NCBI GenBank assembly: GCA_018304545.1 | Contig: JAGVVZ010000003.1 | Location: 96,987 to 160,986, forward strand | Reading direction: 5' to 3' | From: Candidatus Aenigmatarchaeota archaeon | GTDB lineage: Archaea; Aenigmatarchaeota; Aenigmatarchaeia; CG10238-14 | DNA length: 64,000 bases | Part shown: positions 46,543 to 48,796 of the stretch, in pieces | Numbering within the stretch: position 1 is the first letter of the stretch | Layout of the letters: each line of letters starts with the position of its first letter | Translations under genes and position numbers: made by a program | The notes under the pieces: generated by a model | What the model was told of the DNA's origin: nothing | Databases searched by the model: none | What the model saw: only the letters and a program-made list of their open reading frames with translations

Positions 46543-46983
46543 CTAAATTATATTCACATGTGATTTCCTCATCTCATCAATAAAAAGTCTGTGCGTGGGT
46601 TGCATTATATTTGTTTTGAATTCGTTCTCCAACGAGGATATCATTTCAAAACCTTGAGCGTTCAATATCATGTCAATCATTTTCCTTCCAGACTTTTTAA
46701 CAACACCTACATCAGGAGAGTATGTCTTTCCATATCTTGCCTCAACTAAAGCAATAATCTTGTCTATGTTACTAGCAACTATAGCTTTGTATCCCTCCAA
46801 AAATTTTAGTTGTGATCTAGACAATTCTTTTCTAAATTCGTTTATTCTATTAACTAAATTTTTGTCGTCCCCTTTGATGAGTTGTCCGTCGCAATAATTC
46901 AATAAAAATTTCCTAGTGTCAAAAAGTTCAAGCGTGCTGACGCATAGGCCAATTGGTTTAATATCATGCATAGTTATAGTCAT
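46543..46983 (-). CDS. Hypothetical protein (146 aa)
   Basis: No family recognised. Helical and charged: LSRSQLKFLEGYKAIVASNIDKIIALVEARYG, then SGRKMIDMILNAQGFEMISSLENEF. The track frame extends to 47058, but ATG 46983 is chosen because the upstream part lies in the aIF5B promoter and GTGGTAGAT precedes this start. Divergent from aIF5B. Confidence 0.65.
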   Translation of the reverse strand: MTITMHDIKPIGLCVSTLELFDTRKFLLNYCDGQLIKGDDKNLVNRINEFRKELSRSQLKFLEGYKAIVASNIDKIIALVEARYGKTYSPDVGVVKKSGRKMIDMILNAQGFEMISSLENEFKTNIMQPTHRLFIDEMRKSHVNII

Positions 46984-47002
46984 ATCTACCACTAATATAT
47001 TT

Positions 47003-47020
47003 GATATTTTAAAAATATTA
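47003..47020 (+). promoter_or_regulatory. TATA-like element upstream of aIF5B
   Basis: The AT palindrome GATATTTTAAAAATATTA is centred about 27 nt before the aIF5B ATG (47039), giving a near-leaderless transcript. It lies between aIF5B and the divergent gene at 46983. Confidence 0.55.
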
Positions 47021-47038
47021 AAGTGTAAAGTGACTGAT

Positions 47039-48796
47039 ATGGCAATAAGACAACCCATTGTGTCGGTCCTCGGACATTAGTCAATATCGAAGCTAACCGA
47101 AAATGTCGACCATGGGAAAACTAGTTTATTAGATTCAATTAGAGGTAGTGCTGTAAATCTCAGCGAACCTGGGAAAATAACGCAGCATATAGGGGCAAGC
47201 TTTGTACCCATAGAAAACGTCAAAAAAATATGCGGCAACTTACTAGAAAAATTCAACATTGACATAACTATCCCGGGTTTGTTGTTTGTAGATACACCTG
47301 GTCATGAAGCATTCACTACACTAAGAAGAAGGGGTGGATCTGTGGCTGACCTTGCAATTCTTGTAATAGACATCAATGAGGGATTTCAACCACAAACAAA
47401 TGAAAGCCTTAATTATCTAAAACAATTTAAAACGCCCTTTGTAGTAGCTGCAACTAAAATCGACTTAATTCACGGATGGCATCAGAACAAAACGTCATGC
47501 TTTTTGGAAAGCTTTCAGAAACAAAATCCGAAGATACAAGATGAAACTGAAAGACAATTATATAATGTCGTATCTCAACTTGCAGAAAGAGAATTTGAAT
47601 CAGAAAGATTCGATAGAATTTCAGACTTTAAGAAGCAAGTCGCTATCGTGCCATGTTCAGGAAGAACTGGAGAAGGTATTGCAGAATTACTTATGACCCT
47701 AGCTGGATTAGCACAGAGATTTTTAAAGGATAGGTTGACGTTGTCAAAAGACGGAAGAGGCACAGTTCTCGAAGTTAAGGAAGTAAAAGGATTGGGGACA
47801 ACAATCGACGTTATTGTCTATGACGGAAGAGTAGAAGTCGGTAATTATATTGTAATTGGTGGGCAAAAACCACTGATAACCAAAATCAAGGCCTTACTCC
47901 GACCACCTGCATTAAAAGAATTAAGAGTAGAGAAGAAGTTTGACAGTGTGAAAGAAGTTCATGCTGCGGCGGGGATAAAGATTTCTGCTCCGGATTTAGA
48001 AAATGTAATTTCAGGGAGTCCCATAATTTTCGTTTCCTCTGAAAAAGACTTAGGAAGAGCTAAAGAAATGGTTCAAAAAGAAGTACAAATTGTCGATTTC
48101 AAGAAAGATGTCGATGGTGTTATTGCTAAAGCTGACACGCTAGGCAGTTTGGAAGCTCTAATAAAAATTTTAAATGATAATGAAATACCAATTAAAAAGG
48201 CAGAGATTGGAAATGTCAATAAACAAGATGTTATAGAACTTACGGCTGGCAGCAGTGAAATCAGAAAAACTATTTTGTGTTTTAATGTTGATTTGCAACC
48301 CGAGGCAGAAATTTTAGTAAGAGAAGGCAAAATACCAATATTCAAAAGTAATATCATATACCGGATAATCGAAGACTACAAAAAATGGGTTTATGATAAA
48401 ACAGAAAGAGAAAAATCAGAGAAATTAGAATCTGTTATTAGACCGTGCAGAGTAAGGATAATTCCTGGTCTTGTTTTCAGAAAACATAAACCAGCTATTT
48501 TTGGCGCAGAGGTCACTGAAGGTGTTTTGAAAGTTGGAACACCGATGAGTTTAGAAAATGGAAAGGATGTTGGAAAAGTTAAACAAATACAAAAAGACGG
48601 CAAGAATGTGGATATGATTAGAACGGGAGATAAAGCCGCCATATCCATAGACGAACCAACTATTGGAAGACAAATAAATGAAGGTGACATACTAATTTCA
48701 GTTATGACATCACATAATTTGAATTTAATAAAAGAGATATGGGATAAATTACAGGATGATGAAAAATCATTGCTTGCTAAATGGAAAGTGATTTAA
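47039..48796 (+). CDS. infB: Translation initiation factor aIF5B, interrupted by a putative 27-nt intron
   Basis: Joining 47039-47075 to 47103-48796 gives a 576-aa GTPase that delivers/positions initiator tRNA and joins subunits. It begins MAIRQPIVSVLGH and then, after the join, VDHGKTSLLDSI, forming the G1 loop GHVDHGKT. G3 is DTPGHEAF; the expected G4 NKID reads TKID. Domains II-IV follow to the end. Unspliced, TAG at 47078 stops translation after 13 codons. The open frame resumes cleanly and is intact to the stop. The gene end overlaps a convergent Nudix gene by 30 nt. Confidence 0.92.
47076..47102 (+). other. Putative BHB-type pre-mRNA intron (27 nt) in aIF5B
   Basis: It starts A-TTAG and ends A-A. 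Pairing: TCGG (47070-47073, exon) with CCGA (47097-47100) is the 4-bp central helix; ACA (47074-47076) and AAA (47101-47103) are the two 3-nt bulges; TTAG (47077-47080) with CTAA (47093-47096) is the inner helix; the loop is 12 nt. Cuts after the second base of each bulge give AC|A and AA|A, and joining restores GGA-CAT-GTC-GAC. The outer helix is weak (GGTC/GACC with an internal loop), so it is a relaxed HBh'-like motif. No longer element is present. Confidence 0.82.

What the first reader, a model, noticed from the sequence alone, without database searches (positions are those of the whole stretch)
47039..47130. 27-nt BHB-like pre-mRNA intron splitting the P-loop of aIF5B
Seen: the essential GHVDHGKT motif is cut between H and V by 27 nt that begin with an in-frame TAG. 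The insertion and its edges form TCGG/CCGA (4-bp central helix), two 3-nt bulges ACA and AAA, and TTAG/CTAA (inner helix). Cuts at the canonical bulge positions precisely restore GGA-CAT-GTC-GAC and an uninterrupted 576-codon frame. Known: archaeal tRNA endonucleases cut BHB motifs; protein-gene introns of this type are known in only a few genes, mainly cbf5. I know of none in aIF5B. Inference: an aIF5B message must be spliced before it can be read, linking splicing capacity to translation initiation. The intron is among the shortest imaginable for this class.
Basis: partly seen in the sequence, partly recalled or inferred. Interest (0 to 1): 0.93.

Follow-up and report, generated by a model that had tools for sequence, protein, structure and literature searches.

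The report
Recurrent micro-introns in archaeal initiation-factor P-loops
In a tiny archaeon the gene for a core protein-synthesis factor, aIF5B, is broken by a 27-letter insert that is predicted to be cut out of the RNA by the cell's tRNA-splicing enzyme, and relatives carry similar inserts at the same spot, some in the gene of a sister factor, so these messages would need splicing before they can be read.

Summary
Window 47076-47102 (27 nt, in-frame TAG) splits GH|VDHGKT of the only aIF5B gene found in an Aenigmatarchaeota (DPANN) genome. Cutting after the second base of each bulge (AC|A, AA|A) restores 576 codons. Of 134 Aenigmatarchaeota genomes with an aIF5B match, 12 carry an insert at this exact site, in five families; 2 carry one at a second P-loop site, 1 an intein, 114 are uninterrupted, 5 could not be read. 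Lengths (18-32 nt) and loops vary; the helices are kept by compensatory changes (94 of 95 cells paired; covariation matched by 0 of 500 shuffles); some inserts shift the frame. A model of them also hit the homologous codon of aIF2-gamma in five genomes; further inserts lie in aIF2-gamma and Alba. The genome encodes EndA, RtcB and a tRNA-Phe with two BHB introns, one with the same ACA/AAA bulges. Folding energy gives no support, and excision is not shown: there is no RNA data. Coding-frame BHB introns in print are those of cbf5; aIF5B, aIF2-gamma and Alba appear new in the library searched.

The parts
47039..47075 (+). aIF5B exon 1 (codons 1-12 and the first base, C, of His13)
   Evidence: across 12 intron-bearing relatives 4 of 10 codons (R, P, I, G) vary only synonymously, the other six also change residue
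47076..47102 (+). 27-nt intron ATTAGTCAATATCGAAGCTAACCGAAA (excision predicted)
   Evidence: core model R2, built with this sequence among 18, E 2.2e-9, next hit in the window E 3.5
47103..48796 (+). aIF5B exon 2 with stop codon
47070..47073 (+). central helix, 5' strand UCGG (exon)
   Evidence: fold; C-G to U-A change on both sides in 2 of 12
47074..47076 (+). 5' bulge ACA, predicted cut after 47075
   Evidence: same bulge in tRNA-Phe intron 1 of this genome
47077..47080 (+). inner helix, 5' strand UUAG; 47078-47080 is the in-frame TAG
47081..47092 (+). intron loop, variable among relatives (its first base is also paired in the minimum-energy fold)
47093..47096 (+). inner helix, 3' strand CUAA
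47097..47100 (+). central helix, 3' strand CCGA (intron)
47101..47103 (+). 3' bulge AAA, predicted cut after 47102
47062..47066 (+). predicted outer exon-exon helix, 5' strand (pairs with 47106-47110); not flush with the 3' bulge
   Evidence: register differs among relatives
47106..47110 (+). predicted outer exon-exon helix, 3' strand

Best explanation
A 27-nt insert with an in-frame stop splits the P-loop codons of the only aIF5B gene found in this Aenigmatarchaeota genome, and it is predicted to be a bulge-helix-bulge intron that EndA cuts out of the mRNA and RtcB likely seals. Shown: insert, helices and bulges in the sequence, frame restoration, same-site homologues with compensatory changes, and EndA and RtcB genes in the genome. 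Inferred: excision at AC|A and AA|A, ligation, and that aIF5B is made only from spliced mRNA. The insert belongs to a set of micro-introns that sit at the same codon of aIF5B and, in other members of the phylum, of the paralogous GTPase aIF2-gamma. Their patchy spread implies repeated gain and/or loss at one conserved motif.
For: (a) All 17 same-site introns (12 aIF5B, 5 aIF2-gamma) give GHVDHGK (GHVAHGK in G027) when cut by the canonical rule; all 17 hold an in-frame stop when unspliced; 7 of 17 are not multiples of three. (b) Covariation: 94 of 95 cells paired, 13 cells changed on both sides, 0 of 500 shuffles as high on these and on the covariation score (on the two other measures 26 and 471 of 500 shuffles were as high); with 18 introns of three genes 138 of 144 and 22 (6 of these were found with a model of the first 12). 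(c) The insert is in the named GenBank records of G002, G006, G008 and G091, and a database protein of a 97% identical relative on another contig starts with its reading. (d) Between the TAG and TTG 47279 the exon-2 frame has no ATG, GTG or TTG, so without excision no aIF5B with a P-loop is expected. (e) Exon 1 is still under coding constraint: within family f1 five of ten codons vary only synonymously, two change residue (I/L, S/V), three are fixed (my reading of the sequences). (f) EndA, RtcB, and tRNA-Phe(GAA) with two BHB introns, intron 1 with the same ACA and AAA bulges. (g) One full-length aIF5B match in the genome; of the other four, three are listed, at E 4.5e-11 or weaker, in other GTPase frames, and one falls below the listing.
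Against: No RNA or peptide evidence was available. Folding energy is not better than shuffles. The outer helix is imperfect, and published work links pre-mRNA introns with relaxed motifs to hetero-oligomeric EndA (PMC2738675, passages), while this genome shows one EndA frame (180 aa from its ATG) that aligns over residues 4-176 with M. jannaschii 1a79. Whether such an enzyme cuts this motif is untested.
Confidence: 0.94

Rival explanations
1. The insert is retained and the stop is read through (for example TAG as an amino acid), adding about nine residues inside the P-loop.
For: In the window the insert is a multiple of three with a single TAG.
Against: Homologous inserts carry TAG, TGA or TAA, several with two stops, and 7 of 17 shift the frame. 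The insert would break a P-loop that is uninterrupted in 114 relatives.
Confidence: 0.01
2. Assembly error, decaying pseudogene or contaminant copy.
For: The genome is a draft in 11 contigs, and only one gene copy was found.
Against: Inserts at the same base in 12 genomes; the rest of the 576-codon frame is open; helices covary.
Confidence: 0.01
3. Translation starts downstream and makes an aIF5B without the first half of the P-loop, as several database entries imply.
For: 7 of the 120 listed database proteins begin with what looks like intron reading (such as MLKLTENVDHGKT), and others begin after the P-loop.
Against: In the window no ATG, GTG or TTG lies in frame between the stop and 47279; such a protein would lack the P-loop; exon 1 stays under coding constraint. 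The database starts are most likely gene-caller choices.
Confidence: 0.03
4. The insert is removed from DNA rather than RNA in some cells, or acts as a switch whose retained form is regulatory (aIF5B made only when splicing capacity is high).
For: aIF5B and aIF2-gamma are both initiation factors, and both carry such inserts in this phylum.
Against: Relatives without the insert are the majority (114 of 129 readable), also within one genus (G010 against G005 and G008). No search for a recombinase or for excised DNA was made.
Confidence: 0.03

Closest known systems
cbf5 pre-mRNA introns of Desulfurococcales and Sulfolobales (PMC2738675: start of abstract and passages)
   Same: Short (16-44 bp) BHB introns in a protein gene, predicted cuts between the second and third bulge bases, variable inner region, lineage-specific loss.
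   Different: Other phylum (Aenigmatarchaeota), other genes (aIF5B, aIF2-gamma, Alba); the site falls in P-loop codons and recurs at the homologous codon of two paralogues; one short EndA frame found rather than a hetero-oligomer; splicing not yet shown.
BHB intron in the 5' UTR of HVO_1309 mRNA, Haloferax volcanii (PMC7714728: passages)
   Same: An mRNA as substrate of the splicing endonuclease.
   Different: Lies in the 5' UTR; here the insert breaks the coding frame.
tRNA intron transposition in Thermoproteales (Fujishima 2010, not read; as summarised in PMC4090602, passage)
   Same: Very similar BHB introns at many sites, proposed to have moved between genes.
   Different: tRNA genes; here two paralogous protein genes share site and intron type.
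Inteins at GK|T of translational GTPases (judged here by a long frame ending in HN before T; the name is recalled)
   Same: Same P-loop interrupted; seen in aIF5B of G022, L055 and L060 and in aIF2-gamma of G046.
   Different: Protein splicing of a long in-frame element, not RNA splicing.

Membership tests
Archaeal BHB pre-mRNA intron | 4-bp central helix with a 3-nt bulge on either side | tested here: met
Archaeal BHB pre-mRNA intron | Cut between second and third bulge base restores the coding frame | tested here: met
   17 of 17 same-site introns
Archaeal BHB pre-mRNA intron | Flanking helices on both sides (strict hBHBh') | tested here: inconclusive
   Inner helix met; outer exon helix predicted but separated by an internal loop and in varying register; energies no better than shuffles
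Archaeal BHB pre-mRNA intron | Host encodes splicing endonuclease EndA | tested here: met
   (PF01974 E 3.7e-27)
Archaeal BHB pre-mRNA intron | Host encodes RNA ligase RtcB | tested here: met
   (PF01139 E 1.4e-164)
Archaeal BHB pre-mRNA intron | Hetero-oligomeric EndA, as linked to cbf5 introns in print | tested here: inconclusive
   One EndA match in 10 of the 12 family f1 genomes, none in 2; a diverged partner cannot be excluded
Archaeal BHB pre-mRNA intron | Excision and exon ligation seen in RNA | not testable with these tools
   No transcript data held
Intein | Long open in-frame element | tested here: not met
   27 nt with a stop
Group I intron | Match to a curated RNA family in the region | tested here: not met
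   Only one tRNA in the window reaches an Rfam gathering score
Stop-codon recoding | Insert stays in frame in homologues | tested here: not met
   7 of 17 introns shift the frame

The most novel reading that the evidence does not exclude
Aenigmatarchaeota harbour a mobile family of BHB micro-introns whose homing site is the DNA of the GHVDHGK(T/S) codons: it has spread by transposition (reverse splicing or recombination between paralogues) from one initiation GTPase gene to the other, so two factors of translation initiation depend on the tRNA-splicing enzyme before they can be translated. The phylum would be the first known with recurrent introns in several unrelated protein genes other than cbf5.
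Probability: 0.45. Interest if true: 0.9.

Novelty: new variant of a known kind. Interest (0 to 1): 0.82.

Why it matters
A 2020 paper states that, besides its own 5'-UTR case, the only further BHB intron reported in archaea was that of cbf5 mRNA (PMC7714728, passage). Here at least 25 inserts in three other genes, in 19 of 156 genomes, point to a lineage in which mRNA splicing by EndA would be routine. It offers a natural experiment on intron gain and loss at a single conserved codon, and on whether a short EndA handles mRNA.

Tried and rejected
Folding energy as proof: no better than shuffles. ARAGORN with introns allowed gave intron calls on the tRNA loci that I did not trust; I relied on tRNA-Phe, spliced by hand and then recognised as tRNA-Phe(GAA) by ARAGORN. 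R1 over 156 genomes at E up to 1 gave 36 matches: 12 aIF5B, 5 aIF2-gamma, 19 weaker. Of the 19 I opened 15: one intron-less aIF5B (G155), one real intron (Alba of G027, E 0.034), 13 that show no interrupted gene I recognised. The other four (G068, G007, G041, G102) were not opened as hits but lie at the P-loops of intron-less aIF5B genes. R2 over the 36 genomes of the order: 9 hits at E 2.2e-6 or better, all at sites already known; next E 0.079. It did not return the known aIF5B intron of G005, nor the second-site introns; weaker hits were not opened, apart from two also seen with R1 (G006, G033). G029 aIF5B: exon 1 not found beside exon 2, counted as unread. G081 Alba looks interrupted but no canonical cut pair could be fitted by eye; not counted. 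aIF2-gamma was found in 129 of 156 genomes; only the frames with late starts or stops were opened, and starts cut by contig ends (such as G006, G101, G102, G121) were not resolved. cbf5 of the class: several matches with stops inside were not opened; no conclusion. Other phyla could not be searched: the centre must be a genome handle, and the phylum held equals the class. Gene tree: a quick tree of 67 chosen rows (47 loci, 20 of the 120 database proteins, whose intron state was read from their N-termini); G026 left out (partial gene), L041 left out (no long frame); rows L032 and L059 are long. The label is clustered (9 changes against a shuffled mean of 12.9; 3 of 500 as low); changes cannot tell gain from loss. 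The script tally called 15 genomes unread; 11 of these are seen uninterrupted stay unread, and G109 was never fetched.

Full report
WHAT IS THERE. The aIF5B gene starts at ATG 47039. After 12 codons and one base of codon 13, 27 nt intervene (47076-47102), with an in-frame TAG at 47078-47080. With the 27 nt removed the frame runs 576 codons to the stop at 48796 and scores as archaeal aIF-2/aIF5B (TIGR00491, 720.9 bits, cut-off 554.75). Read through, the P-loop GHVDHGKT becomes GH*SISKLTENVDHGKT. Between that stop and TTG 47279 no ATG, GTG or TTG lies in the exon-2 frame; the unspliced frame listed there (505 aa from 47279) lacks the whole P-loop.

STRUCTURE. TCGG pairs with CCGA, TTAG with CTAA, with bulges ACA and AAA. 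Folding of the 92-nt and 53-nt pieces finds this shape and an exon-exon helix outside it, but the energies are no better than shuffles (z -0.31, -0.22), and a 57-nt piece folds otherwise (z +0.52). Energy therefore proves nothing. On the exon side the AAA bulge lies in a larger internal loop, so the motif is canonical in its centre and on the intron side and relaxed outside. A random 27-mer forms both 4-bp helices here in 87 of 200,000 trials.

ORGANISM. The window's genome has 960 kb in 11 contigs, 92% complete.

SAME SITE IN RELATIVES. Class and phylum, as held, are each 156 genomes. 134 have an aIF5B match at E 1e-60. Reading the P-loop (stretches): 12 have an insert between H and V at the same base (G000, G002, G006, G009, G011, G008, G005 in family f1; G026 in f6; G063 in f16; G116, G118 in f32; G091 in f26). 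2 have one inside the Lys codon of GK(T) (G035, G074). 1 has an intein (G022). 114 are uninterrupted. 5 could not be read (G029, G033, G131, G138, G109). In family f1, 7 of 11 readable genes have the insert; within genus g6 two have it and one does not. With the five in aIF2-gamma below there are 17 same-site introns of 18-32 nt. All 17 hold a stop in the unspliced frame, 7 are not multiples of three, and all 17 give GHVDHGK (GHVAHGK in G027) when cut after the second base of each bulge.

COVARIATION. On the 12 aIF5B introns 94 of 95 cells are standard pairs and 13 cells are changed on both sides; none of 500 shuffles reaches these or the covariation score, though for the number of pairs with a two-sided change 26 of 500 do and for further pair types 471 of 500 do. 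Sliding the partner drops pairing to 48.4% or less. Examples: TTAG/CTAA to GTGA/TCAC in G005, TCGG/CCGA to TTGG/CCAA in G091. One strand of the central helix is coding exon. 9 of 12 intron-bearing genes read TCGGACA there, against 2 of the 107 uninterrupted genes that the script's pattern caught (of 114; Fisher p 1.2e-9). Relatedness inflates that p value, and the bias may be a preferred insertion site or selection for the helix.

EXON 1. Across the 12 genes the codons for R, P, I and G vary only synonymously; the other six also change residue. Within f1 five of ten vary only synonymously, two change residue (I/L, S/V), three are fixed (my reading). Exon 1 behaves as protein-coding.

OTHER GENES. 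A covariance model of the 12 introns (R1), run over the 156 genomes, matched 17 genomes at E 0.001: the 12 it was built from, and five whose match lies in aIF2-gamma at the homologous codon (G047, G110, G074, G087, G027). aIF2-gamma was found in 129 of 156 genomes; one more insert sits between D and H of GHVDHGKS in G061. The profile matches of the window genome's own aIF2-gamma (3-406) and Alba (1-65) show no interruption. A weak R1 hit (E 0.034) led to Alba of G027, which has two inserts; Alba of G047, G061 and G063 has one each, at another codon; Alba matches were found in 110 of 156 genomes and only those with late starts, and G087, were opened. Frames restored by canonical cuts: 14 aIF5B, 6 aIF2-gamma and 5 Alba inserts, in 19 of 156 genomes. 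Weak points: the central helix of G035 has one mismatch, those of aIF2-gamma in G074 and G087 one non-pair each; the inner helix of the G047 and G063 Alba inserts is poor as I aligned it; for Alba of G061 the script checked only the restored frame.

MACHINERY. EndA: one match in the genome, 180 aa from its ATG; it aligns over 4-176 with M. jannaschii 1a79 (E 1.7e-29; the lowest E, 3.9e-32, is the fused 5x89). 10 of 12 f1 genomes have exactly one match, two have none; other families have frames of about 364-435 aa as well or instead. That it is a homotetramer is inference. RtcB: one match, open frame 491 aa. tRNA-Phe(GAA) at L001 448-570 becomes a standard 74-nt tRNA after removal of inserts of 18 and 31 nt; intron 1 is GAGC[ACA]TAC..GTA GCTC[AAA], the same bulges as in aIF5B. 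So this genome has BHB introns of the same build elsewhere, at unusual tRNA positions.

DATABASE PROTEINS. Several others begin after the P-loop.

HISTORY. On a quick maximum-likelihood tree of aIF5B exon 2 (67 chosen rows) the H|V intron needs at least 9 changes, 7 forced by starred branches (shuffled mean 12.9), the GK|T intron 2. The direction is not known. Shared features not dictated by the exon (UU..AA at the base of the inner helix, AA at the intron's 3' end) fit common descent or a shared enzyme preference.

COMPARISON WITH PRINT. cbf5 introns: 16-44 bp, mostly unconventional BHB, gain and loss, link to hetero-oligomeric EndA (PMC2738675: start of abstract and passages). PMC7714728 (passages) says only cbf5 had been reported as a further BHB intron, plus its own HVO_1309 5'-UTR case. 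In the passages shown for my search words, PMC6379350, PMC12397907, PMC4090602, PMC6125680 and PMC13149111 name no aIF5B, aIF2-gamma or Alba intron. Ten searches of the open-licence PMC library listed no such paper by title or start of abstract; several lists were cut (20 of 196 and 20 of 253 shown), and subscription papers and preprints are not held. Putative introns in other protein genes cited there (Peng 2004, Brugger 2006) were not read.

VERDICT. The finding is real and larger than stated: a predicted pre-mRNA BHB micro-intron, one of a recurrent set at P-loop codons of initiation GTPases in one archaeal phylum. Excision remains to be shown in RNA.

Noticed in passing
L211, L212, L213, L214, L215: aIF2-gamma of G047, G110, G074, G087, G027 is interrupted by a BHB-like insert at the codon homologous to the aIF5B site; G074 adds a likely intein right after GK.
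   Followed up: yes
L255 (G061): aIF2-gamma interrupted by a 31-nt BHB-like insert between D and H of GHVDHGKS, a third P-loop site.
   Followed up: yes
L251, L252, L253, L259: Alba genes of G047, G061, G063 (one insert each) and G027 (two inserts) are interrupted; splicing by the canonical rule restores GKKP/GRKP and VITQF.
   Followed up: yes
L254 (G081): Alba appears interrupted near GK/P, but no canonical cut pair could be fitted by eye.
   Followed up: partly
L001 448-570: tRNA-Phe(GAA) with two BHB introns at unusual positions (anticodon stem and T arm), about 690 bases upstream of the EndA start codon.
   Followed up: yes
L032, L055, L060, L256: Intein-like long frames ending in HN before T of GKT in aIF5B (G022, a Thermoproteota MAG, a Thermococcus MAG) and in aIF2-gamma (G046): the P-loop is a target of both kinds of element.
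   Followed up: partly
families f8, f9, f15, f32: EndA frames of about 364-435 aa, some with two PF01974 matches in one frame, beside or instead of the short type: several EndA architectures within one phylum.
   Followed up: no
G064, G058, G062, G088, G091, G027: cbf5 matches with stops inside (some may be the natural end), and in G027 a split match with very long open frames (intein-like); possible further interruptions.
   Followed up: no
L033 (G029): aIF5B exon 2 present but no recognisable exon 1 directly upstream; truncation, misassembly or a larger interruption.
   Followed up: partly
window 46543-47058 (-): A 171-aa reverse-strand frame overlaps the first 20 bases of aIF5B exon 1; its true start may lie further in.
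   Followed up: no
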